A stretch of DNA of 46,352 nucleotides, taken from contig JAAENB010000093.1 of the NCBI GenBank assembly GCA_024224995.1, forward strand, positions 1 to 46,352, given 5' to 3'. Positions 6,521 to 20,890 of this stretch are shown piece after piece. The notes beneath the pieces were generated by a model, which worked only from the letters and a program-made list of their open reading frames with translations, ran no database searches and was not told the origin of the DNA. Made by a program: the position numbers and the translations under genes. The DNA is from a bacterium (GTDB lineage: Bacteria > Spirochaetota > UBA4802 > UBA5550). Positions within the stretch are counted from its first letter, which is position 1, and each line of letters opens with the position of its first letter.

Positions 6521-6581
6521 AAAGAAAGGCTTTTTTTCTGCATGGTTTTCTTCTATAAAGACAGGTCTGTTTTTTTTTCTT

Positions 6582-6630: not shown

Positions 6631-6699
6631 GAAGAAGCAGACCCAAACATGGTAGAAACCATGTTAAAATATATGTCAGAACACACGGAAAAACTATAA
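6631..6699 (+). pseudogene. Relic: 3' end of a KADP-repeat gene
   Basis: This stretch translates to EEADPNMVETMLKYMSEHT and then EKL stop. It is nearly identical to the C-terminus of the CHAT protein (KADPNMVETMLKYM) and close to the end of the TPR protein ending at 8523. Nothing upstream continues the frame: it is preceded by the repeat at 6582-6622. I therefore read it as the surviving 3' end of a deleted family member directly upstream of the intact KADP gene at 6715. Confidence 0.75.
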
Positions 6700-6714
6700 T
6701 AAAAGAGAGGAACC

Positions 6715-7257
6715 ATGCCAGAAGAATTAGATGAAGAACTCCCAAAAAAAGAAACCAATCCCATGAAAACGCTCACAACCCTTGCAATGGAGGGCGGGGA
6801 GCAAGCCATAAAAGCAATAACCGAGTTCAAGAACAGCATCCCGGAAGAAGCCTGGGAAACCGAAGAAGGAGAGTCTGGTCTGGCCTATCTCCAATTCCTC
6901 CTGGAACTGGCAGCAGCAGAAGATAAAAACGCGTTCTTCCAAAACGCGGACCCGGAAATGTCGGCAATCGTGCAAACGCTCCTGGGAGAAAAAACAGACC
7001 CCCTGGAATTATTAACACTCAACGCCTACGAGGGAAGTGAAGGCACAAAAGAAAGAATACAAGAGATCATCAACGCCTTCCCGGAAGAAGCCCGGGAGAC
7101 AGAAGAAGGCAAACTAATCTTTGCCTACCTCCAATTCCTCCTGGAATTGGCAACTGCCGAAAACAGGCAAGAATTCCTGAAAAAAGCCGACCCGGACATG
7201 GTAAAAATCATGCTGCAATATATGTCAGAACCCACGGAAGAACCTGCTGAAACCTAA
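6715..7257 (+). CDS. KADP-repeat protein, two repeats only
   Basis: This 180-residue protein consists almost entirely of two copies (about 15-92 and 95-173) of a helical repeat of ~78 residues that I do not recognise. Diagnostic strings are AYLQFLLELA and the NADPEM or KADPDM box near each end. The same repeat closes the TPR and CHAT proteins downstream, so this gene looks like a stand-alone adaptor made of their shared domain. It is acidic, with no signal peptide or membrane segment. The ribosome binding site is GAGAGGA. No copy of the family promoter lies directly upstream; transcription may come from further upstream, through the relic at 6631-6699. Function unknown; an interaction role is inferred from modular sharing. 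Confidence 0.85.
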   Translation: MPEELDEELPKKETNPMKTLTTLAMEGGEQAIKAITEFKNSIPEEAWETEEGESGLAYLQFLLELAAAEDKNAFFQNADPEMSAIVQTLLGEKTDPLELLTLNAYEGSEGTKERIQEIINAFPEEARETEEGKLIFAYLQFLLELATAENRQEFLKKADPDMVKIMLQYMSEPTEEPAET

Positions 7258-7322
7258 ACCGGAACCGGTTCCCGTACGCGACCAACCCTGCGCGTTTTCA
7301 TTGTTTTGGGAGAATTTTCCGG

Positions 7323-7350
7323 TTGATTTTTTAGAGCTTGTTTCTATAAT
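7323..7350 (+). promoter_or_regulatory. Family promoter block upstream of the TPR-KADP gene at 7396
   Basis: A -35 TTGATT (7323-7328), 16 nt, then -10 TATAAT (7345-7350). The surrounding bases are shared with the blocks at 11838, 15484 and 19801. The segment from the -10 to the ribosome binding site is partly duplicated just downstream (TTCTATAATTA at about 7342-7352 and 7399-7409), which places a second ribosome binding site and a TTG at 7441. Confidence 0.8.
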
Positions 7351-7395
7351 TAATCATTAAATTATGCCGGAATTTTCCCCGAAGAAGGAGGAGCC

Positions 7396-8523
7396 ATGTT
7401 CTATAATTACCCCCCAATTTTCCCCAAAAAAGGAGTAACCTTGTCCAATAAATACTATGAAGGCTGGCCCCAGGAAAAACTCCTGAAAAACCTCCTGGAT
7501 GAACTCCTGGAAAAAGAGGAAGATAAAGAAAAAACCGCCGGGTTAAAAGTTCGAATTGGAACACTATTCGAAGATAGAAAAAAATATGATCCGGCTCTGA
7601 TATACCACGAAGAAGCTCTGGATATATTCAGAGAGCTGGGAGATAAAAACGGCATCAGTAAAAGCCTTAATTCTATTAGAAATATCTGCCATTTGCAAAG
7701 TGATTACGATCTGCGTCTGAAATACCACGAAAAAGCTCTGGAAGTATTCAAAGAATTGGGAGATAAAAGCGAAATTAGCGAGAACCTTTACAAAATCGCA
7801 AAGCTCTATGAGATAAAAAAAGACTATGAACAAGCTATGACATATTTTCAAAAATCTTTAAAAATATATGAAGAGATGGATAACCGAACGCGCATTGCTT
7901 TAGCCCTCCATCAAATGGGAATAATTCATGAGAAAAATAAAGACTACGAACAGGCCATTACCTGTTTGCAAAGGTGTGTGGAAACATATAACAAGGATGC
8001 GCATACGGATAGGAAAATAGAAAGCCTCATGGCTTCTGAAATAGGAATGATAGGCCGTATAAACCTGGAATTAAAAAAGTATTCAACAGCCCTGGATAAT
8101 TATATACAAGTATATGTCATACGTAAGAAACTGAAATCCCCGGAGATAGAAGATACAAAAAGAAAAATACAAAAAATAAAACCTTTTCTTGATGAAGAAT
8201 ATTTTTACAAAAAACTGCGCCAGGCTTACATAGACCCGGAAAAAATACCTAAAGCAGAGCCAAAGGGAAAAGCCTTTCCTTTTGAAGAGTTCATAAAGAT
8301 AGCTCTCCGGGAAGGGGGAGAAGGCAAAAAAAATTTTATGAAGTCCATCAATGCCTTACTAAATTCAAATGAAGTAGAACGAACAAATCCAATCCTGGTT
8401 TTTCTCCAATTCCTGGCGGAACTGGCCGCAACCAACGACCCATATGATTTCCTGGATAAAGCCGACCCAAAAATGATAGAAACCATGTCGAAATATGTGC
8501 CGGAATACATGGAAAAACTGTGA
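7396..8523 (+). CDS. TPR protein with one C-terminal KADP repeat
   Basis: A 375-residue soluble protein with four to five TPRs of about 40 residues (about 45-240; typical strings YEQAMTYFQKSLKIYEEM and LALHQMGIIHEKNKDYEQAI), then the family linker (about 245-290, ending YIDPEKIP) and one diverged KADP repeat (about 297-372; VFLQFLAELA, DKADPKM). The ATG at 7396 follows AGGAGG, but its first 15 codons are a duplicated promoter/leader sequence. A TTG at 7441 with its own AAGGAG is an equally plausible start and gives a more family-like N-terminus. The 3' end is disturbed by a heptanucleotide repeat right after the stop; the family's usual downstream sequence resumes at about 8547. Confidence 0.88.
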   Translation: MFYNYPPIFPKKGVTLSNKYYEGWPQEKLLKNLLDELLEKEEDKEKTAGLKVRIGTLFEDRKKYDPALIYHEEALDIFRELGDKNGISKSLNSIRNICHLQSDYDLRLKYHEKALEVFKELGDKSEISENLYKIAKLYEIKKDYEQAMTYFQKSLKIYEEMDNRTRIALALHQMGIIHEKNKDYEQAITCLQRCVETYNKDAHTDRKIESLMASEIGMIGRINLELKKYSTALDNYIQVYVIRKKLKSPEIEDTKRKIQKIKPFLDEEYFYKKLRQAYIDPEKIPKAEPKGKAFPFEEFIKIALREGGEGKKNFMKSINALLNSNEVERTNPILVFLQFLAELAATNDPYDFLDKADPKMIETMSKYVPEYMEKL

Positions 8524-8526
8524 AAA

Positions 8527-8541
8527 GGTGATCGGTGATTG
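8527..8541. repeat. Heptanucleotide repeat at the gene end
   Basis: GGTGATC GGTGATT units follow the TGA of the TPR gene. Sister genes keep a TGAAACCTAAACCGGA-type tail directly at their ends; here that tail reappears only after the repeat, as if the repeat replaced the final codons. Confidence 0.5.
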
Positions 8542-8589
8542 AATACGCTGAAACCTAAACCGGAGCCGGTTCCCGGGAGGGATGCTGCC

Positions 8590-8660
8590 AGGAACCTGCA
8601 CCTTGAAAGCGATGTTACGTAACATCGCTTTCAGAAAGAACCCTCAACAAATTCTTCTCC
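8590..8660. repeat. Palindromic intergenic repeat, copy 1
   Basis: Core 8604-8633 is a perfect 30-bp palindrome with the half-site TGAAAGCGATGTTAC. It is flanked by CTGCACCT on the left and AGAAAGAA on the right. Copies 2 and 3 (17531-17598, and 25115-25184 inverted) differ at two positions of each arm, and both arms change together so that pairing is kept. It lies downstream of the TPR gene and could fold as a transcription-end hairpin or be a REP-like element. Confidence 0.85.
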
Positions 8661-8687
8661 CAAACCTGCGCAAAACGGGCTCCTTCT

Positions 8688-8719
8688 TCATAACGTGGGG
8701 CTGAAGCCCCACGCTATGA
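8688..8719. repeat. Hairpin repeat (CGTGGGGCT arm)
   Basis: CGTGGGGCT (8694-8702) pairs with AGCCCCACG (8705-8713), extended by TCATA/TATGA after one mismatch. It is related to the longer hairpin at 9882-9919 and to the partial copy near 6495-6520. The surrounding 8641-8876 holds no credible gene; the open frame starting at 8695 is repeat-derived. Confidence 0.75.
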
Positions 8720-8876
8720 GAAATACCCATCTGACCAGCATGGGAAACTTATTTATAAACAGAGCCTGTTTACCGGAAGATGTTGCCCGGGGTTCTGCTC
8801 TGCTGCCCTATGGGGTAAACCCCGGGCTAAAATTGACTCATTTCAAAAACTCTCGCGCCCCCTCTGGGGGGCATTC

Positions 8877-8897
8877 TTAACCGATCACCGATCATCC
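8877..8897. repeat. Heptanucleotide repeat (CCGATCA units)
   Basis: Two CCGATCA units followed by CCGATTACC at about 8904-8912, abutting the 3' end of the XRE regulator. It matches the arrangement at 6582-6622. Confidence 0.6.
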
Positions 8898-8907
8898 GGC
8901 CCACCGA

Positions 8908-9291
8908 TTACCTCCCCTCCCCCCCCTGCATCTCCAGCAGCTCCTTCATCTTCTGCTTCGTCAGCATCGCGTCAATAACCTGGATCAACGCCTCTTTATC
9001 CTTCTCTTCCAGGTTATCAATAAGGCGGATCTTAGCGGCAAGGCTCTTATCTTCAACATGAACCTCGGGAGAGTCGGCCTCATCATCGAGCAGATAATCA
9101 GCGGAGACATCGAATATTTCCATTATTTTTTTAACAATATCAATAGAAGGCTGCGCGTGCCCTTTTTCAAACCTGTTAACCTGGGTAAGATGGGTGCCAA
9201 TCATTTCGCCAAGTTTTTCCTGGGAGAGCCCTTTTTCTTTCCTTAAAGACCTTATTTTCTCGCTTAAATTCATATTTTCCACCCGGTTCAT
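8908..9291 (-). CDS. XRE-family helix-turn-helix regulator
   Basis: A Cro/CI-type DNA-binding protein of 121-127 residues. The HTH_3 domain is clear (LSEKIRSLRKEKGLSQEKLG, then MIGTHLTQVNRFEKGHAQPS), ending in DVSADYLLDDE. A helical C-terminal tail (about 85-127) probably mediates dimerisation. The longest frame starts at 9291, but the in-frame ATG at 9273, preceded by GGTGGA, is the more likely start. It is the only dedicated DNA-binding protein inside the KADP island and faces away from the structured leader at 9455-9583. It might control that leader or the shared family promoters, but no operator can be assigned. Confidence 0.88.
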   Translation of the reverse strand: MNRVENMNLSEKIRSLRKEKGLSQEKLGEMIGTHLTQVNRFEKGHAQPSIDIVKKIMEIFDVSADYLLDDEADSPEVHVEDKSLAAKIRLIDNLEEKDKEALIQVIDAMLTKQKMKELLEMQGGEGR

Positions 9292-9454
9292 ATTTATAAT
9301 TTCGCAAACAACTTTACGATAAAACCAAAATAAAGCAAACTATTTATATAAAAAAGTCAAAAAAAGACTTGCACTATACTTAAAAGAACATACATTGTGT
9401 TTAGTTGTATTGAGAAACAGTTTTTTCAAATACAACAATTTTTTCAAAAGAAAA

Positions 9455-9480
9455 GCCCCATCTCCGGCAAGAGATGAGGC
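9455..9480 (+). terminator. Hairpin, second copy at 15433
   Basis: GCCCCATCTC pairs with GAGATGAGGC around a CGGCAA loop (nine pairs, one mismatch), followed by CTTTCC. A close copy lies at 15433-15458. It could be a terminator or the first element of the leader of the gene at 9593; the weak T-run argues against a strong terminator. Confidence 0.45.
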
Positions 9481-9510
9481 CTTTCCAGAACAATCCTTAC
9501 GGAGAGCCCT

Positions 9511-9583
9511 ACTTAAAAAATAAGCCCTTTAAGTAAAAAGCTCTTCTTAAGAATTGTCAATCAAAAATTAATTTCTTAAGGAG
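9511..9583 (+). promoter_or_regulatory. Structured leader before the small gene at 9593
   Basis: Two hairpins: ACTTAAA (9511-9517) with TTTAAGT (9528-9534), and CTTAAGAA (9546-9553) with TTCTTAAG (9573-9580). The second stem ends inside the Shine-Dalgarno AAGGAG (9578-9583) and would hide part of it. This is compatible with regulated translation; no known riboswitch class is recognised. Confidence 0.45.
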
Positions 9584-9592
9584 AACAAAATC

Positions 9593-9835
9593 ATGAAAGA
9601 ACAAACACTTCAGCTCCCCTCAGTGACCATGGATTCAGACGAACAGGAAACCCTGGAAAGAGTACTCAAAGAAATAATTCTAAATCTTCCCCTGGACGCG
9701 TCGTCAGGTGAGGAACTCTACCGCTCAAACATCCCGGAACTGCGGGAGCAGTTCAAGGTGAGTCTTTACGGGTATGAGATGCGCGCGTTGAGGACTTTGC
9801 TGCAGAAGGTCCGGCACTTCGGCTCCGCTCAGTGA
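9593..9835 (+). CDS. Small protein of unknown function with a repeat-derived C-terminus
   Basis: This 80-residue product starts MKEQTLQLPSVTMDSDEQE and has a well placed AAGGAG, so translation is credible. I do not recognise the family; it appears mostly helical with no signal peptide. Its last residues HFGSAQ and the TGA are encoded by the CTTCGGCTCCGCTCAGTGACC repeat, which is repeated immediately downstream. The original C-terminus has probably been lost and replaced by repeat sequence. Its neighbours are the divergent XRE gene and, beyond two repeats, the convergent SBBP lipoprotein gene. Confidence 0.6.
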   Translation: MKEQTLQLPSVTMDSDEQETLERVLKEIILNLPLDASSGEELYRSNIPELREQFKVSLYGYEMRALRTLLQKVRHFGSAQ

Positions 9836-9871
9836 CCTGCTGCTTCGGCTCCGCTTCGCTCAGTGACCTGC
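9815..9871. repeat. Two tandem copies of a CTTCGGCTCCGCTCAGTGACC-like repeat
   Basis: Copies at about 9815-9840 and 9841-9871, each ending AGTGACCTGC. The inverted core TGAGCGGAGCCGAAG is found near 627 and 779. The first copy forms the stop codon of the small gene at 9593. Confidence 0.7.
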
Positions 9872-9881
9872 CTGGTGAGGA

Positions 9882-9919
9882 TTCTCATAGCGTTGGGTTG
9901 AAACCCAACGCTATGAGAA
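9882..9919. repeat. 18-bp-stem hairpin repeat
   Basis: TTCTCATAGCGTTGGGTT (9882-9899) pairs perfectly with 9902-9919, leaving only two central bases. It is related to the hairpin at 8688-8719, with both arms altered in a matched way (GTTGGGTT against GTGGGGCT). It lies between convergent genes and could act as a bidirectional transcription-end structure. Confidence 0.8.
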
Positions 9920-9955
9920 AACAGCAAGTGAAATTCCCGGTAAAAACCGTAATAT

Positions 9956-11596
9956 TTATTGCTTTTCACCTATTGAGTTATATTTTACCAGAAAAATATC
10001 ATAATTTTGAAAACTTCCTATATTTGTATTCCCATCAAGACCACCTTCTGTATTCCCGGTAATATAAATATTACCTGAACTGTCTGTTGCTACTCCTTTA
10101 GAGCAATCATCAGAATCGGATCCCATTTGCCGGGTCCATTGCTTTTCTCCTGATGAGTTATACTTTACCACAACGATGTCTGTTCCTCCTGAGTTTATTT
10201 CCCCGTCAAGACCGCCTTCTGTATTCCCGGTAATATAAATATTGCCTGAGTTGTCTGTTGCGACTCCATGAGCTTGATCATGTAATTCGGTTCCCAATTG
10301 CCGGGTCCATTGCTTTTCGCCTGATGAGTTATACTTTGCCAGGAACATGTCGTCTTTCCCGGCCCATGTATTTCCATCAAGAGCACGACCTGTCCGCCCG
10401 GCAACATAAATATTTCCAGAGCTGTTTATTGATACACCGTTAGCAAATTCATTTAGAACCGTACCTAATTGCCGGGTCCATTGCTTTTCTCCTGATGAGT
10501 TATACTTTACCAGGAAGAAGTCTGTACATCCGGCGTTTGTATTTCCATCCAGATCACCACCGGTGCTCCCGACAACATAAATATTACCATAGCTGTCTGT
10601 CGAAACTCCTTTAGGGCTATCACTCCTGTCGGTTCCCATTTGCCGGGTCCATTGTTTTTCACCTAATGAGTTATACTTTACCAGGAAGACGTCGGATTGT
10701 CCGGCGTTTGTATTTCCATCAAGGTCACCATACGTATACCCGGCAACATAAATATTACCAGAGCTGTCTATCGAAATTCCTTGAGGGTTATCCCCCATAT
10801 CGGTTCCCATTTGCCGGGTCCATTGCGTTTCTCCTGATGAGTTAAATTTTACCACAAAGAAGTCACGTTCTCCGGCGTTTGTATTCCCATCAAAGTCGCC
10901 AAAAGTATACCCGGTAACATAAATATTGCCTGAGTTGTCTGTTGCTACTCCATGAGCTGTATCTGATTCAACCGTCCCAATTAGCCGTGTCCATTGTTTT
11001 TCACCTGATGAGTTATACTTTATCAGGAAGAAGTCGTTTTTTCCGGCGTTTGTATTCCCGTCAAGGTCATAATACGTATACCCGACAACATAAATATTTC
11101 CAAAATTGTCTGCTGCCATCCCACGAACATATTCATCTCTTTCCCCTCCCAGCTGTTGTGTCCCTGCCCAAACACTTTCTATTGTATATACTAAATTAAG
11201 CTGGTCCATTTCATTTCCTGCAAAATCTTCGCAGTCAATATCAAGAGTAAGATCATCTCCAACACTCCAATCCGTAAAAGGGCTCAATGTCAGGGTGTCA
11301 TTCTCATACGTAGTTGTTGACCATGTAAAACCTGCTTCCAAAGACAAATCCCCGTTTAATAAAATCGTACCCGCAGCCATTGACTCGCTAAAAGTTATTA
11401 CAATGTTATCGGTCAGGCTTATAGTTGATCCGCTTACGGAGCTTATGGTGAGAACTGTTGGAGGAGTTGTATCAATATCATTATCTCCACCATTACCGCC
11501 TCCACCACTACCCAAACCACAGCCTTTGTTACATCCTGCTAAAAACAAAGCTAATATTATAATTAAAATTGTTGATAATTTTAATGTTTTATTCAT
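9956..11596 (-). CDS. Lipoprotein with Ig-like domain and seven SBBP (beta-propeller) repeats
   Basis: The 546-residue precursor begins with a lipoprotein signal peptide (hydrophobic stretch, then lipobox LAGC at about 19-22) and a Gly-rich linker. A SwmB/Big_5-like Ig domain follows (about 45-145; TPPTVLTISSVSG, IVITFSESM). Seven SBBP repeats of about 57 residues come next, each with a GNIYVxGYT strand, LDGNTNAG, a FFLVKYNSSGEKQWTRQ strand, and GT. Seven repeats would suit a seven-bladed propeller, but the last stops at GEKQ, losing its WTRQ strand. The protein should be anchored at the cell surface or outer membrane. The ribosome binding site AGGAAG is clear. Ligand and role are unknown. 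Confidence 0.9.
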   Translation of the reverse strand: MNKTLKLSTILIIILALFLAGCNKGCGLGSGGGGNGGDNDIDTTPPTVLTISSVSGSTISLTDNIVITFSESMAAGTILLNGDLSLEAGFTWSTTTYENDTLTLSPFTDWSVGDDLTLDIDCEDFAGNEMDQLNLVYTIESVWAGTQQLGGERDEYVRGMAADNFGNIYVVGYTYYDLDGNTNAGKNDFFLIKYNSSGEKQWTRLIGTVESDTAHGVATDNSGNIYVTGYTFGDFDGNTNAGERDFFVVKFNSSGETQWTRQMGTDMGDNPQGISIDSSGNIYVAGYTYGDLDGNTNAGQSDVFLVKYNSLGEKQWTRQMGTDRSDSPKGVSTDSYGNIYVVGSTGGDLDGNTNAGCTDFFLVKYNSSGEKQWTRQLGTVLNEFANGVSINSSGNIYVAGRTGRALDGNTWAGKDDMFLAKYNSSGEKQWTRQLGTELHDQAHGVATDNSGNIYITGNTEGGLDGEINSGGTDIVVVKYNSSGEKQWTRQMGSDSDDCSKGVATDSSGNIYITGNTEGGLDGNTNIGSFQNYDIFLVKYNSIGEKQ

Positions 11597-11837
11597 TTTC
11601 CTGTCTTCCTTTCCAATTTGATTTTTATTAATTATTATGTGTGATTTATTAAAGGAAAAGGGTAAATTAAATATAAAAATAAAAGAAAATGTCTGAATAA
11701 TCTTTTAAAATTTCAAGAGATGGGTGTATTATACAAACGCATGTATATTGAGTAGTTTTTTAGAAATTATCCTTTATAATGAAAATTCATCAAAGGGAGC
11801 ACTCACAAAAACGGCCTGTTTTGAGAGGTTTTTTTTG
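11597..11837. other. AT-rich divergent intergenic region with a decayed promoter copy
   Basis: It holds the upstream region of the SBBP lipoprotein. A 29-bp stretch at 11752-11780 aligns without gaps to the family promoter block at 11837-11865: it keeps GTTTTTTAGA-like sequence and a perfect TATAAT (11775-11780) but has lost the TTGATT. It is followed by AAAGGGAG without a start codon, which suggests the remains of another promoter and leader. Confidence 0.5.
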
Positions 11838-11865: not shown

Positions 11866-11895
11866 TTAGCGGTAAATTATTCCCGGAGCGTGTGT

Positions 11896-14800
11896 ATGTT
11901 AGACAGGATTACGGTTGATATAAAAAATTTCATGATGAAACGGTTTAACAATGAAAGCAATTTCGACGGCCTTTGCCGGGAACTGGAAATAGATGCTATT
12001 TTTGCCGGTAATTTTGATGAAAGAATATCAAGTTTAATTAAGAAACTTGAAAGAGACATTCCCAATCCTTCTGAGGAATTGTATAATGCATTGCTGGTTT
12101 TATCTCCAAACTTCAAACAAGAAATTAACTCCTTGTTTGGGATTCTTTCGCCCGGGACCGGTTCCGGGTCTCCCGACTCCGGAGAAGACTCCAGGCAGGT
12201 AAAGATCCTTTCTATTACGGCTTCCCCGGAGGACTCTATCCTTTACGAACGTGAGCAGGAAGTTCTTCTGGATTCATTCCAGAATTTTACTCATAATAAA
12301 CTTGCCATAGACATGCCCGACCCTATGCGGTCCACGCTTACTGAGATTGAACTCTGGCTAAACGAATATCAGCATGATATTCTTATTCTTTCCGCTCATG
12401 GAAGTGTATCGGGCGGGCTTCGCCTTGAAGATGAGCTGGGCGACGGGGCTGCTGTTTCCGGTATGGAGCTGGCGCTGAAATTGAAGAGCCTTAAGAACAA
12501 ACCTTTAATTGTGATTTTATCTGCCTGCTTTTCCGGTAATGCTGATATCCAGGTTGACCTGGCGTCCCCAGCGCGGACGATTTTTGAGAATTGTGAGGTT
12601 CCCTGTGTTATCGGTATGAAGAAGGAGATTAGTAATTTTGCTGCCATTGATTTTAATAAGGGTTTTATTGATTCTCTCATGGAGGGAGATTCCGCGAAGG
12701 CTGCTTTTGAAATGGGCCGCAAGGCTATTGCTCAGGGTGAGGCTCTGCGTATTCAGGATCAGGGCGATATGTGGGTGCCTCGAAATGAGGACTCTATTCC
12801 TGTGCTCTTTTGCCGGGAGGACGAGCTTTCGGAGAATCTTTCTATTAAGGATTTTAATGACTCCATTATCGGGCATAGCAGCAGGCCTAATTCTGCCGAT
12901 TTTCTCAGGGCCAGGTATATGGAACGGGGGTTTATCGGCCGGAGGATGGAGCTGCGGGGTGTGCTGCGGAAGGTGCTGCGGGAGAAGGATGGGGTTGTTG
13001 TGGTGAAAGGGCCCGGCGGTATTGGGAAATCGGCGTTTACTACCAGGGTGTGCGCTAACCTTATGGCAAGAGGTTATGCGGTTATTCCGCTGGTGGGGAG
13101 TATCAGCGTTAAAGATGTTATGGAGCGTTTGTTTGATAGGGCTCGTGAGGCAGGGATTTCCGGTGCTGATGTTATGCGGGAGAACAGTTCCGGTTCAGGG
13201 GATAAGTTTTTGTGGCTGCTGAATAATTATCTTCTGCGGAATGGGGACGGGGAAAAGATTGCCATTATTTTCGATAACTTTGAGGATAACCAGGAAGAAT
13301 CTTCGGGGAATACCGGGGAGGAGCTGCGGCAGTTTATTGGTGATTGTAATAAGCTCCTTTCGAATCACGCGCCGGTTCTGTTTATCACCACCAGGGTGGA
13401 AATTCCTTTTGTGAGAACTGCTCTTGATTTGGGTGAGCTCTCGCCCATGGAAAACAGAAAACTCTTTTTAAATTTTAAGACCCTTTCCAGATTGAGCGGA
13501 AAAGAGATTGGGATACTTCGTAGAGATATTGGGGCGAATCCCAGGGCTCTGGCTCTGCTGGAGGTTATTGCCTTTGAAGAGTTTGGTGATAAAGAGTTTG
13601 ATCTTACTAACCTGGACGAGCTCATCAAAGAAGCCAAAAAAATAGTTATCGCTGATAGCAATAGTCAGGAGCATGATTTCACTCCCTGGTTTATTGGCAG
13701 ATTGGTTTCTTACCTGGGAGAGGATGAAGTGAAACTCTTAAAGGCGATATCCATTTATAGGGAGCCTGTTGAGAAGGAAGGGCTTGAGGTTTTTGGGATC
13801 ATCGTTAGCAGGGAGAGCAGGAAGAAGTTGGAGAGGTTTTCATTGGTGGAGTATGTTCCTCGTATGTTTTATGTGCATCGGCTTACTGCGGGGTATGTTG
13901 TGGGGGAGTTGTTTAAGAAGGATGAGTTGAAGGAATGGAGAGGGAAGGCTGGGAAGTACTTGTTTGATAAAGAGGATGAAGAAGGTCATCCTTCTATAAA
14001 TGATCATATTGAGGCTATTTCCCAGTTCCGGGAGGCAGGGGAGTTTGATAGGGCCTTTGAGATTGCTGATGTTGTACAAGCATTCTTAGAAGACCGTGGT
14101 TATATTTATGAAGCACGAGATATACTTGAGGAGTTTTTGGAAGATGAGCTTGAGGAAAAGAACAGGGCGGGCCTGTTTCATTCTATTGGTATTATTGAAC
14201 AAAAGCAGGGGAATTGGGACAAAGCTCTTAGTTATTATAATGATTCTATGAAAATTTATGAAAATCTGGGAGATAAAAGTAGTATCAGCATAAACCTCCA
14301 TAACATTGGAACAATTGATCAGCAAAAAGGAAACCATGAACGGGCTATTACATTTTTTCAAAAATCCCTCAAAATAAATGAAGAGCTGGGAAACAAAAGC
14401 AGTATCAGCGGAAGCCTCCACCAAATTGGATTACTACACCAGTACAAAGGAGACTACGAACAAGCCATTACATTTTATCAAAAATCCCTCAAAATAAATG
14501 AAGAGCTGGGAAATAAAAGCAGAATCAGTGATAGCCTCCTTCAAATTGGAATAATATACCAGAAAAAAGGAGACTATGAACAGGCCATTACATTTTTTCA
14601 AAAATCCCTCAAAATAAATGAAGAGCTGGGAAATAAAAGCAGAATAAGTAACACCCTCCATCAAATCGGAATGATCCACCAGCAAAAAAAAGACTATGAA
14701 CAGGCCATTACATTTTATCAAAAATCTCTTTCAATCAAAGAAGAACTGGGAGACAAAAACGGAATCAGTATCACCCTTCATCAAATTGGAATAATATACC

Positions 14801-15393
14801 AGAAAAAAGGAGACTATGAACAGGCCATTACATTTTATCAAAAATCTCTGAAAATATCAAAAGAGCTAGGAAATAAATATGGTATCGCCAATTCAAAAGG
14901 ACAGATCGGTTTCCTAAAACTTGAATTAGAAAAGTATACCGAAGCACTGGACGACCTGACAGAGGCATACCTCCTCTGCGAAAAACTGGGAACCCCAGAA
15001 ATTGAAATAGTAAGAAATGGAATCTTAGAAGCAAAAAACCATATCAATGAAAAAGACTTCAAAGAAATCCTGAACCAGGCCGGAATAGACCCGGAAAAAC
15101 TGCCCCAGGAAGAAGAAACCGATTTCCTAAAAATGTTCACAATCCTGGCCTTACAGGATGGGGCAAAGGCCGCAGAAGCAATAAGAAAAATCGTCAACGG
15201 CATCTCGGAAGAAGCCCAGGAGACCGAAAAAGTGAAATTTATCCTTACCTACTTCCAATTCCTCCTGGAATTGGCCACAGCCGAAAACAAAAAAGAATTC
15301 GTGGAAAAAGCAGACCCAAACATGGTAGAAACCATGTTGAAATATATGAAAGAATATGTGGAAGAACACACGGAAGAACCGACTGAAACCTAA
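11896..15393 (+). CDS. CHAT caspase-like protease fused to P-loop NTPase, TPRs and a KADP repeat
   Basis: About 1165 residues; numbering here starts at a GTG at 11890, but the ATG at 11896 has better spacing from GGAG. Domains: an N-terminal ~85-residue helical domain resembling effector-associated domain 1 (GNFDERISSLIKKLE); a CHAT protease (about 98-285) with His170 in LSAHGS and Cys213 in LSACFSG, so the dyad is intact; a STAND-like NTPase with Walker A GPGGIGKSAF (about 374-383) and Walker B IAIIFDNFED; a winged-helix/helical region; about seven TPRs (760-1015), six of them near-identical 40-residue units; the AGIDPEKL linker; and one KADP repeat (about 1069-1150). CHAT-STAND-TPR proteins are known conflict or cell-death proteases; the C-terminal KADP repeat is the new element. 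Base usage changes from G/T-rich to A-rich near 14100, as if the TPR-KADP part were exchanged. Target unknown. Confidence 0.93.
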   Translation: MLDRITVDIKNFMMKRFNNESNFDGLCRELEIDAIFAGNFDERISSLIKKLERDIPNPSEELYNALLVLSPNFKQEINSLFGILSPGTGSGSPDSGEDSRQVKILSITASPEDSILYEREQEVLLDSFQNFTHNKLAIDMPDPMRSTLTEIELWLNEYQHDILILSAHGSVSGGLRLEDELGDGAAVSGMELALKLKSLKNKPLIVILSACFSGNADIQVDLASPARTIFENCEVPCVIGMKKEISNFAAIDFNKGFIDSLMEGDSAKAAFEMGRKAIAQGEALRIQDQGDMWVPRNEDSIPVLFCREDELSENLSIKDFNDSIIGHSSRPNSADFLRARYMERGFIGRRMELRGVLRKVLREKDGVVVVKGPGGIGKSAFTTRVCANLMARGYAVIPLVGSISVKDVMERLFDRAREAGISGADVMRENSSGSGDKFLWLLNNYLLRNGDGEKIAIIFDNFEDNQEESSGNTGEELRQFIGDCNKLLSNHAPVLFITTRVEIPFVRTALDLGELSPMENRKLFLNFKTLSRLSGKEIGILRRDIGANPRALALLEVIAFEEFGDKEFDLTNLDELIKEAKKIVIADSNSQEHDFTPWFIGRLVSYLGEDEVKLLKAISIYREPVEKEGLEVFGIIVSRESRKKLERFSLVEYVPRMFYVHRLTAGYVVGELFKKDELKEWRGKAGKYLFDKEDEEGHPSINDHIEAISQFREAGEFDRAFEIADVVQAFLEDRGYIYEARDILEEFLEDELEEKNRAGLFHSIGIIEQKQGNWDKALSYYNDSMKIYENLGDKSSISINLHNIGTIDQQKGNHERAITFFQKSLKINEELGNKSSISGSLHQIGLLHQYKGDYEQAITFYQKSLKINEELGNKSRISDSLLQIGIIYQKKGDYEQAITFFQKSLKINEELGNKSRISNTLHQIGMIHQQKKDYEQAITFYQKSLSIKEELGDKNGISITLHQIGIIYQKKGDYEQAITFYQKSLKISKELGNKYGIANSKGQIGFLKLELEKYTEALDDLTEAYLLCEKLGTPEIEIVRNGILEAKNHINEKDFKEILNQAGIDPEKLPQEEETDFLKMFTILALQDGAKAAEAIRKIVNGISEEAQETEKVKFILTYFQFLLELATAENKKEFVEKADPNMVETMLKYMKEYVEEHTEEPTET
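14221..14940 (+). repeat. Six 120-bp tandem repeats encoding TPRs
   Basis: Units start at 14221, 14341, 14461, 14581, 14701 and 14821, exactly 120 bp apart. Units 2 to 6 are very similar at the DNA level, including synonymous sites. Each encodes one 40-residue TPR (YEQAITFYQKSLKINEELG). Such similarity points to recent unequal recombination or gene conversion, possibly also with the sister genes. Confidence 0.92.
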
Positions 15394-15432
15394 ACCGGAC
15401 CGGTCCCCCGGGAGGAATATCACCAGAATCCC

Positions 15433-15458
15433 GCCCCCTCTCCGGCATGAGATGAGGC
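15433..15458 (+). terminator. Hairpin after the CHAT gene
   Basis: GCCCCCTCTC pairs with GAGATGAGGC around CGGCAT, followed by CTTTCC; it is a copy of the hairpin at 9455-9480. It lies 40 nt after the CHAT stop codon and before the next family promoter, so it may end the CHAT transcript. Confidence 0.5.
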
Positions 15459-15483
15459 CTTTCCCCGACCCCTGTTTTTTTGG

Positions 15484-15511
15484 TTGATTTTTCAGAGTCA
15501 AGTTCTATAGT
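15484..15511 (+). promoter_or_regulatory. Family promoter block upstream of the KADP gene at 15535
   Basis: TTGATT (15484-15489), 16 nt, TATAGT (15506-15511). The bases around the -35 (GGTTGATTTTTCAGAGTC) match the CHAT promoter. A strong AAAGGAGAAGCC ribosome binding site follows, directly before the ATG at 15535. Confidence 0.82.
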
Positions 15512-15534
15512 TAAGCAAAATCAAAGGAGAAGCC

Positions 15535-16173
15535 ATGTTTGAAGAATATAATAAAGACGAAATGTTTGAAGAATACGATGATGACCAGCTTCTGAGAATT
15601 AAAGAACAACTCATGGAAGGATTTAGAAAGGAAGAATACTCCCTCCCAAAAAAAGAAACAACTCAAGAAGAAACGAATCCCTTAAAAATGCTCACAATCC
15701 TGGCCCTCCACGACGGCCCGCAAGCCGCACAAACAATAAAAGGAATCGTCAACGGAATAAGCCGTGAGGATAAACTAAGCGCCCAGGGCCGGGCCTTCAT
15801 CGCCCACTGCCAATTCCTCCTTGAACTGGCAGCAGCAAAAGACAAAAACACATTCCTTGCAAACGCGGACCCCAAAAAGGTAGAACTCGTACAAACGTTC
15901 CTGAGCGAAGAAGACCCCGGGGCACCGGAAGAAGAAACCGATCCCATGAAAATGCTCTCAATCATGGCAATGGAAAACAGTGAGCAAGCCATAGAACTGA
16001 TAAAGGAACTCACCAACAAAATGAGCAAACAGGAAAAAAAAAGCAAAGACGGCCAGGCATTCCTGGCCCACTGCCAATTCCTCCAGGAACTGGCAGCAGC
16101 AGAAGATAAAAACGAGTTCCTGGAAAAGGCAGACCCTGCAATGGCAGGACTCGTGCGAATGACACTAAGATAA
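15535..16173 (+). CDS. KADP-repeat protein, two repeats
   Basis: A 212-residue protein with a short acidic N-terminus and two KADP repeats (about 43-122 and 137-212; FIAHCQFLLELA with NADPKK, and FLAHCQFLQELA with KADPAM). The N-terminus is internally duplicated (MFEEYNKDE then MFEEYDDDQLL), and the second copy matches the start of the next gene (MFEEYDDDRLL). It therefore looks like a paralogue of that gene from which the TPR part was deleted. An ATG at 15562 is an alternative start, but the good ribosome binding site favours 15535. The next gene follows 13 nt downstream, so the two are probably one transcript from the promoter at 15484. No signal peptide; function unknown. Confidence 0.87.
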   Translation: MFEEYNKDEMFEEYDDDQLLRIKEQLMEGFRKEEYSLPKKETTQEETNPLKMLTILALHDGPQAAQTIKGIVNGISREDKLSAQGRAFIAHCQFLLELAAAKDKNTFLANADPKKVELVQTFLSEEDPGAPEEETDPMKMLSIMAMENSEQAIELIKELTNKMSKQEKKSKDGQAFLAHCQFLQELAAAEDKNEFLEKADPAMAGLVRMTLR

Positions 16174-16186
16174 AAAAGGAGAAACC

Positions 16187-17476
16187 ATGTTTGAAGAATA
16201 TGATGATGACCGGCTCCTGGAAGAAAAAGAACAACTTCTGGAAGAACTGGAAAAGCAGGGAGATAAAGAAGCACTCTCCCACTTAAATGACCGAATAGGA
16301 ATAATATACGAAGAAAGAGGAGAATATGAACAGGCGTTGAGATACTACAATGAATCTCATAGAGAATTAAAAGAGCTGGGAAATAAACACCTCTTAAGCG
16401 GAAATCTCCATCAAATGGGAATGGTATACCAGAGAAAAGGAGACTATGAACAGGCTCTGACATTGTATCAAAGATCTCTGGAAATAGATGAAGAGCTGGA
16501 AGATAAAAACGGCATCAGTACAAGCTGCCATAATATAGGAATGGTACACCAGAATAAAGGAGACTATGAGCAGGCTCTAAGCTATTATCAAAGATCTCTG
16601 GAAATAGATGAAGAGCTGGAAGATCAAAGCGGCATCAGTTCAAGCCTCCATCAAATAGGGATGTTACACCAGGTAAAAGGAGAATATGAACAGGCCCTGG
16701 CATTATATCAAAGATCTCTGAAAATAGAAGAAGAGCTGGATGATAAATACGGGATCGCTAACTCAAAAGGGCAGATAAGTTCGATCAAACTTGAATTGGA
16801 GAAGTATGCCGAATCCCTGGAGTATTCCCTGGCGGCATTCTGTCTCTATAAAGAACTGGAAGCCCGGGAAATTGAAACAGTCAGAAAGGGAATCTTAATA
16901 GCAAAAGATCATATGGATAGAAAGGAGTTCAACGAAAGCCTGAACCGGGCCGGAATAGACCCGGAAGAGCTGATCCGGGAAGAAGAAGATGATGATGATT
17001 TCAACCCCACGCAAATGCTCACAATTATGGCAATGGAAGACGGAGAGCAAGCAACAGAAATGATAACAGGACTCATCAACGGAATGAGCAAGGAGACGAA
17101 AGAAACCAAAGACGGGCAAACAGCTTTTTCTTACCTCCAATTCCTCCTTGAACTGGCAGCAGCAGAAGACAAAGACGCGTTCCTCGAAAACACGGATCCG
17201 AAAATGTTAAAAGTCGTAAAAAAGATCCTGGGCGAAGAAACCAATCCCTTAGAACTAATCGCAGCCCTGGCATTGGAAGAAGGAGAGCAAGCCGCGGAAC
17301 TGATAACGGAACTCGTCAGCGGAATGAGCAAAGAAACGAAAGAAAGCCCGGAAGGGAAAGAATTTCTCGCGCGCAGCCAATTCCTCAAAGAGCTGGCAGA
17401 AGCAGAAGACAAAGACGGGTTCCTGAGAACAGCAGACCCGGAAATGGTAGAATTTTTGAAAATGGCCCTGGAATAG
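16187..17476 (+). CDS. TPR protein with two C-terminal KADP repeats
   Basis: A 429-residue protein: a short acidic start (MFEEYDDDRLLEEKEQ), five TPRs of 40 residues (about 30-225; strings such as YEQALTLYQRSLEIDEELED and SSLHQIGMLHQ), the family linker (about 230-262, ending AGIDPEELIREEE), and two KADP repeats (about 270-345 and 350-428). It is preceded by AAAGGAGAAACC and lies 13 nt after the two-repeat KADP gene, so the two genes probably form an operon. Similar TPR units at the DNA level link it to the CHAT gene. The TPRs probably bind a protein partner; the KADP repeats could bind KADP repeats of the neighbours (inference). Confidence 0.9.
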   Translation: MFEEYDDDRLLEEKEQLLEELEKQGDKEALSHLNDRIGIIYEERGEYEQALRYYNESHRELKELGNKHLLSGNLHQMGMVYQRKGDYEQALTLYQRSLEIDEELEDKNGISTSCHNIGMVHQNKGDYEQALSYYQRSLEIDEELEDQSGISSSLHQIGMLHQVKGEYEQALALYQRSLKIEEELDDKYGIANSKGQISSIKLELEKYAESLEYSLAAFCLYKELEAREIETVRKGILIAKDHMDRKEFNESLNRAGIDPEELIREEEDDDDFNPTQMLTIMAMEDGEQATEMITGLINGMSKETKETKDGQTAFSYLQFLLELAAAEDKDAFLENTDPKMLKVVKKILGEETNPLELIAALALEEGEQAAELITELVSGMSKETKESPEGKEFLARSQFLKELAEAEDKDGFLRTADPEMVEFLKMALE

Positions 17477-17530
17477 GTTGTGTGTAGGGCTGGTTTCCGG
17501 GGTGCGACCCCCTGCGAGGGGATCTTACCC

Positions 17531-17598
17531 GGAAACTGCACCTTGAAAGCGACGTGACGTCACGTCGCTTTCAGAAAGAATCTTCGGCTGATTCTCCC
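17531..17598. repeat. Palindromic intergenic repeat, copy 2
   Basis: Core 17544-17573 is a perfect 30-bp palindrome with the half-site TGAAAGCGACGTGAC. The right flank AGAAAGAATCTTCGGCTGAT contains a second small stem (GAATC/GATTC). It lies 55 bp after the preceding TPR-KADP gene and is nearly identical to the inverted copy at 25115-25184. The preceding 17484-17520 carries a GGTGCGACCCC-type GC-rich string also seen near 350. Confidence 0.88.
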
Positions 17599-17618
17599 CC
17601 AACTCCTCTTTTTTTTCC

Positions 17619-17646
17619 TTGATTTTTAAAAATTAAGTACTATACT
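17619..17646 (+). promoter_or_regulatory. Family promoter block placed for a leaderless transcript
   Basis: TTGATT (17619-17624), 16 nt, TATACT (17641-17646). The ATG of the next gene begins at 17654, only 7 nt after the -10, where transcription would start. No Shine-Dalgarno sequence exists between them. Confidence 0.75.
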
Positions 17647-17653
17647 TAAAGAA

Positions 17654-19693
17654 ATGATAAAGAAAATAACTAAAAAAATAAAGAACCTATATAGCAGCGG
17701 TAAAGACGATCATACCGATATTAGTGTTCAGCTCATGGTTATTTACCGGCTGCAGCAGGCCGGAAAGTATAATCAAGCCTTTGAAATAGCCAATGAGCTG
17801 CAATTTAATTTAATAAACCAGGGCGAAATATTCATAGCCCGGAATATCCTCGAAGAATTCCCAATAGAAAAACTCAATGAAAGCAACCAGGCTCACCTGC
17901 TTCATTCCACGGGAGTAATAGAGTACGAGCAGAAAAACTATGAAGAGGCCGAGATCTGTTATTCGCGATCCCTGGAAATATTCGAAAAGCAGAATGATAT
18001 AAATGGCATAGCCGTATCGCAAGGAGAAATAGGGACGATCTATTTTAAAAGAGGAGAATACGAACAGGCGCTAAGCTGCTATAATAAATCCCTGGAAACA
18101 TTCAATGAATTGCAGTCCACCTATGATATCGGTATAAGTCTTTATAGAATGGCAATCATATACCGGGTAACAGGAGACTATGACCGGGCAATTTCCTGCT
18201 ACAAAGACTGCATGGAAATATTCAGAGAACTGGGCGATAAACAGGGCCTGGCCCGCACGAGCAGTGAAATAGGAATGATCTATCAGGAAAAAGAAGATTA
18301 CGACCGGGCAATGGCTTTTTATAAACAGTCTTTGCAACTCAGTAAAGAGCTGGGAGTGAAACAAAACACCTGCTATTGCTATCAGCAAATAGGGAACCTT
18401 CATTTTAAAAGAGAAGAATATGAAGAGGCACTGTTATATTTCCGGAAATGCCTGGAAGGGGCTCTGGAGCTGGGTGATGATATCCAGGTAGCCACGTTAC
18501 ACGGGCGGGCAGGCCTGCTAAACGTAGTCTTAGAAAAATATACCCGGGCCCTGGAATGTTTTATACAGAGCTATACCCTGTTTAAAAAACTGGGCAGCCC
18601 GGATATACGGATAGTCGTCAACGAGATCCTGAATCTAAAAAATTATATTGATAAAAAAGACTTTAACAAAAGCTTAAAAAAGGCCGGGATTAAACTCAAC
18701 GAGCTAACCCGGGAACCGGAAGAAACCGATATAAAAACATTAACAATTCAGGCGCTTCAATCCTCGGATGAAGTCATAGAAATAGTAACAATGCTAATAA
18801 AAAGTATGCCTGAAGAGGTTAAAACAAGCTCAAAAGGTAAAGATATTTTTGCCTACTACCAATTCCTCCTTGATCTTACGAGGGCAGGAAACAAAGAAAC
18901 ATTCCTGGAAAAAGCGGATACCAGGTTAGTAGAAAACATGGAAATGTTCCTTACTGAGGAGTCATCCCCGGAAGAAGAAGCTCCGGTCCAGGCAGATAAA
19001 GACACTTTAGGAGTTTTAACCTTTGACGCGTATGTGGGAAATAAAGACGTAATAAAAAGAATAGAAAACGTAATAGCCAATATTCCGAAAAAGGCCCGGC
19101 AAAGCAATGAAACAAAAGAATTTTGCGCCATACTCCAATTCCTCCGGGAACTGGTCTCTACTAAAAACAGGAACGAATTCCTGAAAAAAGCCGACCGTGA
19201 GATGCTGCGGAACATAAGCTCAATTCTTTTTAAATCGGGACTTTTCCGGTATGAGAAAAAAGACTTTGAACAGGCAATTGCTCATTTCCGGAAATCTCTG
19301 GAAATATCCGAAGAACTGGAAGATAAAGACGGGATGGGAAACAGCTTTCATCAAATAGGTATGATTTATCATGAAACAGACGACTATAAACAGGCATACT
19401 CCTGCTATCAGCATTCTTTGAAATTCAAAGAAGAACAGGGCGATAAAACAGGTATAGCCTCATCAAAAATCATGATGGGTCTGCTAAACCTGAAAGTTAA
19501 CGATTTTAGCAGCGCTCTGGATTGTTTTATACACTCATATATCCTCCTTAAACAAATAGGAACCCCCTATGTAAAAGTTGCTGAAAAGAAAATACTCTAT
19601 ATGAAGCGTTTACTCGAGGAAAAAGACTACAACGAAAGCCTGAGCCGGGCCGGGATCAATCCGGCAGAACTCTCCCCTGAAGAAGAAGCTTAA
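17654..19693 (+). CDS. Double-TPR protein with two central KADP repeats
   Basis: The 679-residue protein is built as TPR block (about 90-310), linker (AGIKLNELTRE), two KADP repeats (about 360-435 and 455-525; FAYYQFLLDL with KADTRL, and CAILQFLREL with KADREM), a second TPR block (about 530-640) and a second linker (AGINPAELSPEEEA), stopping exactly where a KADP repeat would begin. Its N-terminus (about 25-85, with YNQAFEIANELQ and IARNILEEF) aligns with the segment of the CHAT protein between NTPase and TPRs (FDRAFEIADVVQ, EARDILEEF). It thus resembles a CHAT-type protein stripped of protease and ATPase. The start seems leaderless; no better internal start is seen. Confidence 0.88.
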   Translation: MIKKITKKIKNLYSSGKDDHTDISVQLMVIYRLQQAGKYNQAFEIANELQFNLINQGEIFIARNILEEFPIEKLNESNQAHLLHSTGVIEYEQKNYEEAEICYSRSLEIFEKQNDINGIAVSQGEIGTIYFKRGEYEQALSCYNKSLETFNELQSTYDIGISLYRMAIIYRVTGDYDRAISCYKDCMEIFRELGDKQGLARTSSEIGMIYQEKEDYDRAMAFYKQSLQLSKELGVKQNTCYCYQQIGNLHFKREEYEEALLYFRKCLEGALELGDDIQVATLHGRAGLLNVVLEKYTRALECFIQSYTLFKKLGSPDIRIVVNEILNLKNYIDKKDFNKSLKKAGIKLNELTREPEETDIKTLTIQALQSSDEVIEIVTMLIKSMPEEVKTSSKGKDIFAYYQFLLDLTRAGNKETFLEKADTRLVENMEMFLTEESSPEEEAPVQADKDTLGVLTFDAYVGNKDVIKRIENVIANIPKKARQSNETKEFCAILQFLRELVSTKNRNEFLKKADREMLRNISSILFKSGLFRYEKKDFEQAIAHFRKSLEISEELEDKDGMGNSFHQIGMIYHETDDYKQAYSCYQHSLKFKEEQGDKTGIASSKIMMGLLNLKVNDFSSALDCFIHSYILLKQIGTPYVKVAEKKILYMKRLLEEKDYNESLSRAGINPAELSPEEEA

Positions 19694-19800
19694 AGGCTCC
19701 AAAAACACCAATAAACCCGGGATACAGTGCTGCAGCCATGCAGGTTTTTTATCAGGCTGAAATTCTCCTTACCAGACCTGTGAAGATAATGCTTTTTTGG

Positions 19801-19828
19801 TTGATTTTTTAGGGCCATTTAAAATAGT
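19801..19828 (+). promoter_or_regulatory. Family promoter block upstream of the TPR-KADP gene at 19868
   Basis: TTGATT (19801-19806), 16 nt, AATAGT (19823-19828); preceded by TTTTTTGG as in the copies at 11838 and 15484. The -10 is weaker than in the other copies. A GGGAAAAGG stretch ahead of the ATG provides the likely ribosome binding site. Confidence 0.7.
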
Positions 19829-19867
19829 TATCAGCATAAAAATCAATCCGGGAAAAGGTCTTAAATC

Positions 19868-20890
19868 ATGACAGAAGAAAGAAAGGTCGAGAGCAAGAGC
19901 CTGCATAAGAAGGGGCAGGAGCACCAGCAAAAAGGCGAGCACGACCAGGCGCTCGAATACTATAACAAGTCTTTAAAAATCGATGAAGAGCGTGGAGACA
20001 AGGGCGGCATCAGTGACAACCTGCACCAGCTGGGGACAGTATACCAGGGCAAAGGTGAGTATGAGCAGGCAATATCGTATTATAACAGGTCTTTGACAAT
20101 AGATGAGGAGCTGGGGCACGCGGTTGATGTGGCAGGGACCAAAGGGCAGATCGGTTTATTAAACATGGAGCTGAAGCGTTATACAGAGGCGCTTATATGT
20201 TTTACCCAGGCGTATATCCTGTACAAGCAGGAGGGAGCGCCTGAGACAAAGCAGGCGGCAAGAGATATATTAAGAGTAAAGACTTTCATAAACGAAACCG
20301 ATTTTACGGAAAGCCTGGAGCGGGTCGGTATAGCAGTGGAAGAGCTGGCGAAATATGAAGACGATTTATTTCAGGCAATAACCTTACTGGCAGTAGAGGG
20401 AGGGGAAGAGGCCACTGAAGCTATCCGGGAAGTGATCAAGAGCTTGCCGGAGCAGGCGCTGGGCGAAGAGGAGAACGAGATCATCGCGTACCTGGAATAC
20501 CTGGAAAAGCTGTCCCAGGCGAAAGATCAAAACGAGTTCATAAAAAATTCGGACCCAAATATGTTGATCTTAATGCAAATGATACTAAAAGATCAACCGG
20601 ACAAAGAAGCGGGAAACATTCCGGGAGCAGGGGACGCGGAAAAAAATCCCCTGGAAGTGTTAACGCTATACGCGTACCAGGGACATAAAGAAGCGATAGA
20701 AGTAATACAGGCGACAATAGAGAGCCTGCCGGTAGAAGTAAATGAGAGCGAAGAAGGCGAGGAGGTCCGTGAATATCTCCACTTCCTGTTAAAGCTGGCA
20801 TCCACAGAGAACAGGGAAGAATTCCTGAAAAAAGCCGACCGTGAGATGGTTACATTTATGCTGAATCTCATTCCAGAGGACATAAAGTAA
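19868..20890 (+). CDS. TPR protein with two C-terminal KADP repeats
   Basis: A 340-residue protein with two to three TPRs (about 10-125; HDQALEYYNKSLKIDEERG, YEQAISYYNRSLTIDEELG), the linker (about 130-158; ERVGIAVEEL) and two KADP repeats (about 163-240 and 258-335; IAYLEYLEKL with NSDPNM, and REYLHFLLKL with KADREM). It is the most GC-rich and most diverged member by eye (GCG and CAG codons common), so it is probably not a very recent duplicate. It is the last member of the island. A heptanucleotide repeat follows the stop codon within 10 bp. Confidence 0.88.
   Translation: MTEERKVESKSLHKKGQEHQQKGEHDQALEYYNKSLKIDEERGDKGGISDNLHQLGTVYQGKGEYEQAISYYNRSLTIDEELGHAVDVAGTKGQIGLLNMELKRYTEALICFTQAYILYKQEGAPETKQAARDILRVKTFINETDFTESLERVGIAVEELAKYEDDLFQAITLLAVEGGEEATEAIREVIKSLPEQALGEEENEIIAYLEYLEKLSQAKDQNEFIKNSDPNMLILMQMILKDQPDKEAGNIPGAGDAEKNPLEVLTLYAYQGHKEAIEVIQATIESLPVEVNESEEGEEVREYLHFLLKLASTENREEFLKKADREMVTFMLNLIPEDIK

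What the first reader, a model, noticed from the sequence alone, without database searches (positions are those of the whole stretch)
6631..20890. Undescribed-looking CHAT/NTPase/TPR/KADP-repeat island
Seven genes share one repeat of ~78 residues (12 intact copies and a relic at 6631) that I cannot assign to a named family. Its signature is a xAYLQFLLELAxAE block followed about 5 residues later by EFLxKADPxM. It occurs alone (6715, 15535), behind TPRs (7396, 16187, 17654, 19868) and behind a caspase-like CHAT protease with a STAND-like ATPase (11896). A domain shared between an enzyme hub and stand-alone proteins usually mediates homotypic recruitment. My hypothesis is a protease with TPR sensors and KADP adaptors or substrates, acting in defence or programmed cell death.
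Basis: partly seen in the sequence, partly recalled or inferred. Interest (0 to 1): 0.88.

Follow-up and report, generated by a model that had tools for sequence, protein, structure and literature searches.

The report
Expanded sensor-tail domain beside CHAT-STAND protease
A bacterium has a cluster of small genes that share a new helical domain with the sensor end of a neighbouring receptor-like protease, apparently by local duplication, and they may plug into, tune or decoy that protease.

Summary
Seven genes carry 12 copies of an ~80-residue domain ("KADP") plus a 17-residue relic. No Pfam or NCBIfam model matches it over its cut-off, and PADLOC lists nothing for the KADP-only proteins. AlphaFold2 predicts an all-helical bundle behind the TPR array; no solved fold stands out. 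The hub at 11896 is an unnamed 88-residue domain, a CHAT protease with its His/Cys pair, a STAND-type ATPase, TPRs and one KADP.
KADP has distant relatives: a divergent form caps six TPR proteins in 4 of 142 genomes of the Aminicenantes class, five STAND-type and two of those with CHAT; profiles match at 95%. There it is single. None of 18 relative loci has a second KADP gene, though six are under 10 kb. Only 2 of 8 CHAT-STAND-TPR relatives with an intact end have it. The window's six TPR tails split from 12 relatives' tails (100/99). The island looks like a local duplication of a receptor's sensor end, not a recurrent gene system. Docking of satellites onto the hub through KADP is plausible but untested.

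The parts
6631..6694 (+). relic of a KADP 3' end (HMM part 6631-6681)
   Evidence: HMM E 7.7e-4 (positions 65-81); DNA 86% identical to 15304-15367
6715..7257 (+). KADP-only protein, two copies (6748-6990, 6988-7230)
7396..8523 (+). TPR protein with one C-terminal KADP (8269-8505), the most divergent copy
11896..15393 (+). hub protein: N-domain, CHAT, STAND, TPRs, KADP
   Evidence: the ORF opens at GTG 11890, the database length fits 11896
11896..12159 (+). 88-residue N-terminal domain, unnamed (weak EAD7-like Pfam match below cut-off)
   Evidence: 72% identical to the start of P0002; EAD7 E 0.15, 12.3 vs 32 bits; model pLDDT 37-49 by block
12142..12879 (+). region scanned as CHAT caspase-like peptidase; His170 and Cys213 (numbered from the GTG at 11890)
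   Evidence: PF12770 37.2 vs 24 bits over profile positions 123-281 of 289; dyad alignment
12877..14109 (+). region scanned as STAND-type NTPase, Walker A GPGGIGKS and Walker B
   Evidence: nSTAND3 29.7 vs 27.2 bits, but matched only around the P-loop, 41 residues; motifs
14251..14877 (+). homogeneous TPR array of the hub, 120-bp unit, 5.2 copies
   Evidence: TPR_12
15112..15354 (+). KADP copy of the hub
15535..16173 (+). KADP-only protein, two copies (15667-15909, 15931-16170)
16187..17476 (+). TPR protein with two KADP copies (16994-17236, 17234-17473)
17654..19693 (+). TPR - two KADP (18719-18958, 18995-19234) - TPR protein
19868..20890 (+). TPR protein with two KADP copies (20354-20593, 20639-20878)

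Best explanation
The island is a local expansion of the sensor end (last TPRs, a conserved tail and KADP) of a receptor-like protease gene. The hub is built like an NLR: the TPR array senses something, the STAND ATPase switches and assembles, and the clustered CHAT peptidases become active (inferred from family knowledge). KADP is a small helical cap at the end of the TPR array. In this lineage it has been doubled and placed on satellite proteins with TPRs (spare sensor arms) or without them (KADP pairs). I infer that the satellites act on the hub through KADP-KADP or KADP-TPR contacts, either bringing in other ligands or acting as decoys or inhibitors that set its threshold. Shown: the anatomy, likely homology to the cap of STAND-TPR proteins, paralogy within the window and open reading frames. 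Inferred: the direction hub to satellites, sensing, protease activation, KADP-mediated docking and a conflict or cell-death role.
For: 12 copies in seven open genes. Five of the genes in a row on one strand, 141, 13, 177 and 174 bases apart (coordinates). CHAT pair and Walker motifs in place. All six window TPR tails on one side of a 100/99 split from 12 relatives' tails. DNA paralogy, e.g. 14501-15330 vs 16371-17212 at 72%. KADP-like cap at the same place, behind the TPR tail, in six proteins of the Aminicenantes class, five of them STAND-type by homology to the hub (Pfam AAA_22 over cut-off in L042 and L043). hhalign 95%, E 2.7e-8; best real scores 20.7 and 21.9 bits vs best of 1,200 shuffles 9.6 and 9.4. 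P0002 joins the hub's N-domain and the first CHAT residues to the end of the TPR tail and two KADP copies (junction read by eye). pN < pS in 66 of 66 KADP pairs. In relatives the same core carries TIR or Schlafen-AlbA domains at its N-terminus.
Against: No interaction, expression or phenotype data. The window-only profile finds L026 at 6.5 bits and does not list L042 or L043, and in the reverse direction the weakest window copies score 8.1 and 8.2 bits, below the best shuffle (9.4), so part of the homology rests on iteration and shared position. Net charge is -3 to -13 in 10 of 12 KADP copies, -1 in one and +5 in one, which does not favour simple charge-driven self-association. Satellites carry no enzymatic effector that the libraries recognise. 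dN/dS among the 16 closest pairs is 0.30-0.88, so constraint is loose. PADLOC recognised only generic TPR models and weak candidate-system matches in the eight proteins scanned.
Confidence: 0.42

Rival explanations
1. KADP is only a structural C-terminal cap of TPR arrays. The island is an ordinary tandem duplication of a TPR gene end, and the satellites have unrelated or no roles; KADP-only genes are leftovers of deletion.
For: Single-copy cap in all six relatives found; no second KADP gene in 18 relative loci, six of them under 10 kb; a 3' relic at 6631 and the deletion-like P0002 suggest gene turnover; loose constraint, dN/dS up to 0.88 among the 16 closest pairs; homogeneous TPR units.
Against: All seven frames are open and pN < pS in every pair. 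Doubled KADP occurs in five of seven genes, more than a plain cap needs. Two KADP-only proteins persist with no TPR to cap.
Confidence: 0.33
2. The KADP-only and TPR-KADP proteins are substrates of the CHAT protease, cleaved on activation to release an effector or signal.
For: A caspase-like protease beside small, mostly acidic proteins with a low-confidence linker in the one modelled. CHAT proteases with partner substrates are known (Csx29; recalled, and listing only).
Against: No recognisable effector part in the satellites; relatives' CHAT proteins show no such KADP neighbours.
Confidence: 0.1
3. KADP is a full effector-associated-domain (EAD-like) homotypic adaptor that couples the hub to effectors encoded elsewhere in the genome.
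For: Small, helical by model, shared by hub and neighbours, window paralogues closer to each other than to relatives, as section 30 of PMC7159879 describes for EADs (read).
Against: No KADP copy in the window is fused to an effector or signalling enzyme other than in the hub itself; the host genome is not held.
Confidence: 0.12

Closest known systems
CHAT-STAND-TPR proteins of the Aminicenantes family (L014, L020-L027) and P0005
   Same: 38-41% identity across CHAT, STAND and TPRs; same motifs; a KADP-like cap in L020 and L026, and P0005 matches the cap region of L020 at 78%
   Different: Of seven with a complete N-terminus five have TIR_2, one Schlafen AlbA_2 and one no Pfam match, instead of the window's 88-residue domain; no KADP satellites seen
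Effector-associated domains (EADs; PMC7159879, section 30 read)
   Same: small helical non-catalytic domain on a core protein and on neighbouring genes
   Different: KADP copies are joined to TPRs or to each other, not to effectors; no EAD model of Pfam matched KADP
TPR-CHAT Csx29 of Craspase (PMC9729208, PMC10028731: listing and start of abstract only)
   Same: TPR and CHAT peptidase in one protein
   Different: here CHAT precedes STAND and TPRs (the Csx29 order is recalled); a gRAMP/Cas7-11 partner was not looked for
NLR / STAND receptors with C-terminal repeats (recalled; passages of PMC8195603)
   Same: effector - NTPase - repeat order
   Different: extra C-terminal helical cap, with satellite copies

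Membership tests
CHAT peptidase (PF12770) | Profile match over the curated cut-off | tested here: met
   37.2 bits vs 24, profile positions 123-281 of 289
CHAT peptidase (PF12770) | Catalytic His and Cys (roles recalled) | tested here: met
   H170 and C213 aligned with 10 relatives; P0005 alone has Tyr for His
STAND NTPase | STAND-family profile match and Walker A/B | tested here: met
   nSTAND3 29.7 vs 27.2 bits, but only 41 residues around the P-loop; motifs kept in 11 of 11 aligned
EAD (effector-associated domain) for KADP | Small, non-enzymatic domain with a copy on a core component (most EADs helical) | tested here: met
[quoted passage not shown]
   100/99 split, tested on the TPR tail of five genes, not on KADP itself and not on the KADP-only genes
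EAD (effector-associated domain) for KADP | Further copies fused to effector or signalling domains | tested here: not met
   the six satellites in the window show only TPR or KADP; the rest of the genome is not held
EAD7 (PF19960) for the hub N-domain | Profile match over cut-off | tested here: not met
   12.3 vs 32 bits, E 0.15; not listed for P0002
TPR cap of STAND-TPR proteins (KADP-like) | Homologous domain at the same position behind the TPR tail | tested here: met
   weaker single-sequence scores
Csx29 / Craspase | TPR before CHAT (recalled) | tested here: not met
   order is CHAT-STAND-TPR
Csx29 / Craspase | gRAMP/Cas7-11 partner | not tested
   not searched for
Known anti-phage system | PADLOC model specific to a system | tested here: inconclusive
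   generic TPR models and weak candidate-system matches only, eight proteins scanned; the library gives no cut-offs

The most novel reading that the evidence does not exclude
KADP is a new class of homotypic adaptor that evolved from the cap of an NLR-like sensor. One effector receptor has exported its sensor tip onto separate proteins, making a hub-and-satellite receptor network in which interchangeable sensor arms (TPR-KADP) and bare KADP regulators dock on one CHAT-STAND protease.
Probability: 0.25. Interest if true: 0.72.

Novelty: new variant of a known kind. Interest (0 to 1): 0.46.

Why it matters
If the satellites dock on the hub, this would show how a bacterial NLR-like receptor can widen its ligand range by duplicating detached sensor arms, instead of one receptor per ligand. 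It also gives an uncurated domain a place (the cap of some STAND-TPR sensors) and shows one CHAT-STAND-TPR core carrying TIR, Schlafen-AlbA or other N-terminal modules.

Tried and rejected

My recollection of a widespread cap behind bacterial TPRs ('GERD'-type) could not be tested. The G242 hit lies inside a 339-residue TPR-like protein, was judged chance, and its locus (L044) was dropped from the later counts. Searches with the hub N-domain found 4 of 34 genomes at E 0.004-0.09, in unrelated-looking proteins. Plasmids: 109 records matched protein 16187, and the five listed cover only its TPR part; one record matched the hub's first 738 residues, in CHAT. Phages: none. Rfam and tRNA scans of the window were empty. 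Placement of the host: the gene at 40094 is 66% identical to Candidatus Aminicenantes RS_8_31, but SelB is only 32-39% identical in that class (30 rows), so kinship is unsure.

Full report
What is there. The window holds seven genes with 12 copies of an ~80-residue domain plus a 17-residue relic. Pairwise identity runs from 21 to 53%. Five columns are invariant (A13, L51, L54, F63, D68). Copies are paired in five genes (6715, 15535, 16187, 17654, 19868) and single in two (7396 and the hub). Five genes from 11896 to 20890 lie in a row on one strand; 6715 and 7396 lie apart, separated from them by an HTH gene and a beta-propeller gene on the other strand.

The hub. The 11896 protein has an 88-residue N-terminal domain, CHAT (37.2 bits, cut-off 24), a STAND-type NTPase (nSTAND3 29.7, cut-off 27.2, matched only around the P-loop), TPRs and one KADP. 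His170 and Cys213 (numbered from the GTG at 11890) align with the same residues of relatives; 10 of 11 aligned proteins keep both, and P0005 has Tyr for His. Walker motifs are kept in 11 of 11. The N-domain matches EAD7 only weakly (E 0.15, below cut-off) and its model is poor, so I leave it unnamed.

The domain. No curated family matches KADP over its cut-off. AlphaFold2 on TPR-KADP-KADP of gene 16187 (seven window sequences) gives mean pLDDT 86.1. Each KADP is an all-helical bundle (ten-residue blocks 64-89 and 67-92), and residues 136-143, the linker behind the TPR tail, are below 50. pTM is 0.48, so the arrangement of the domains is not settled. Structure searches gave no convincing match.

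Relatives by protein search. Among 5.8 billion proteins, protein 15535 found only itself and P0002, and the KADP end of the hub only itself. These searches are not exhaustive: they did not return other KADP proteins of the window that fit the length limits (6715 and 19868, 17654), and with L020 found only itself and P0005, not L026. P0002 has the hub's N-domain (72% over 88 residues), the first residues of CHAT, then the end of the TPR tail and two KADP copies. By eye it looks like an in-frame deletion of the enzyme core; its longest contig is 2,673 bases. Pattern scans with four of the copies found nothing in viral or species-genome contigs.

Relatives by genome search. The gene at 40094 led to Candidatus Aminicenantes RS_8_31 (66%). 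In that genome's family the hub was sought in 8 of 34 genomes, the larger ones; all 8 had matches at E <= 1e-20, and CHAT-STAND-TPR homologues of 38-41% identity came from five of them. The window-only profile gave one weak hit in 34 genomes (E 0.004). That hit lay at the end of such a homologue, and two more homologues ended alike. Profiles including these found a KADP-like domain in 4 of 34 genomes of the family and 4 of 142 of the class, six places in all. An even sample of 396 genomes of the phylum gave one match, judged chance. All six lie behind a TPR tail: two CHAT-STAND-TPR proteins (L020, L026), three STAND-TPR proteins without CHAT in their frame (L031, L042, L043) and one 159-residue TPR-tail protein (L041). 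Profile-profile comparison gives 95% probability, E 2.7e-8 over 58 columns. The window-only profile scores L020 at 20.7 bits, L041 at 18.6, L031 at 13.4 and L026 at 6.5; L042 and L043 are not listed. The best of 1,200 shuffles is 9.6. So the more distant members join by iteration and by position.

Linkage. I fetched 15 places around hub homologues (out of the longer list) and four around new KADP hits, and dropped one (L044). In these 18 loci (1,033 ORFs of 50 residues or more) the only KADP-like ORFs were the six already known; no locus had a second one. Six of the 18 loci are under 10 kb (L014, L020, L025, L026, L033, L041), three of them among the six with KADP, so a distant partner could be missed. 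Most neighbours show no similarity to the hub; L029, L030 and L032 have nearby TPR-matching ORFs. Of eight CHAT-STAND-TPR relatives with an intact C-terminus two have the cap; a ninth (L025) is cut off by its contig. CHAT is in 28 of 34 genomes of the family, up to 26 matches per genome, so CHAT does not imply KADP.

Origin of the island. The six TPR tails of the window (from five genes) are split from 12 relatives' tails at 100/99; most inner forks are unresolved, L042 is a long branch and the root is a drawing aid. No closer kin of the host were available, so 'lineage-specific' means relative to these genomes. DNA copies are 66-86% identical, and the relic at 6631 matches the hub's 3' end at 86%. 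Nonsynonymous change is below synonymous in 66 of 66 KADP pairs; dS is saturated in 23, and dN/dS of the 16 closest is 0.30-0.88. So the copies are diverged, open and loosely constrained. The direction (hub to satellites) is an inference.

How it may work. By family knowledge, STAND proteins with repeat sensors switch and assemble on ligand binding, and caspase-like domains act when clustered. The relatives carry TIR (5 of 7 complete N-termini), Schlafen-AlbA (1) or an unmatched stretch (1) in front of the same core, as expected of effector receptors. KADP at the sensor tip, present also on TPR and bare proteins, suggests detachable sensor arms, decoys or inhibitors. The EAD principle (PMC7159879: passages, section 30; PMC8195603: passages) offers the closest concept. 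KADP meets its other hallmarks tested here but not fusion to effectors.

Print check. Searches for CHAT domain + TPR + Aminicenantes (no paper), effector-associated domain + CHAT + STAND + TPR (two papers, passages of one seen) and TPR-CHAT + STAND + caspase-like (five papers, listing only) showed no report of this domain or island. That covers only the open library and those words. Host kinship is uncertain and no host genome is held.

Noticed in passing
8602-8640, 17542-17580, 25134-25172 (-): Dispersed palindromic element with a 14-bp stem and paired changes between copies, REP-like; two copies lie just behind KADP genes.
   Followed up: partly
L020, L023, L024, L025, L026: TIR-CHAT-STAND-TPR proteins in genomes of the Aminicenantes family; L021 has Schlafen AlbA_2 plus HATPase_c_4 in the same place.
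   Followed up: partly
P0005: CHAT-STAND-TPR protein with a KADP-like end and Tyr in place of the catalytic His, possibly an inactive version.
   Followed up: no
G004 and G006: 26 CHAT matches in each of two genomes of 7.6 and 10.4 Mb; the next are 15 and 13.
   Followed up: no
5362-5455 and 34831-34924: Piece of a gene with a weak Rpn-like match is repeated at 87% identity.
   Followed up: no
9956-11596 (-): Beta-propeller (SBBP) protein with a lipoprotein-like start and 171-bp repeats inside the island.
   Followed up: no
6362-6580: Short ORF starting MARVYPNPLVDAFSGK, without a Pfam match, next to the relic.
   Followed up: no
3156-4979 and 40094-42028: Conflicting kinship: acetyl-CoA hydrolase-like gene (name recalled) 66% to Aminicenantes, SelB-like gene only 32-39%.
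   Followed up: partly
27261-27405 and 27573-27717: 145-bp direct repeat at 82% identity.
   Followed up: no
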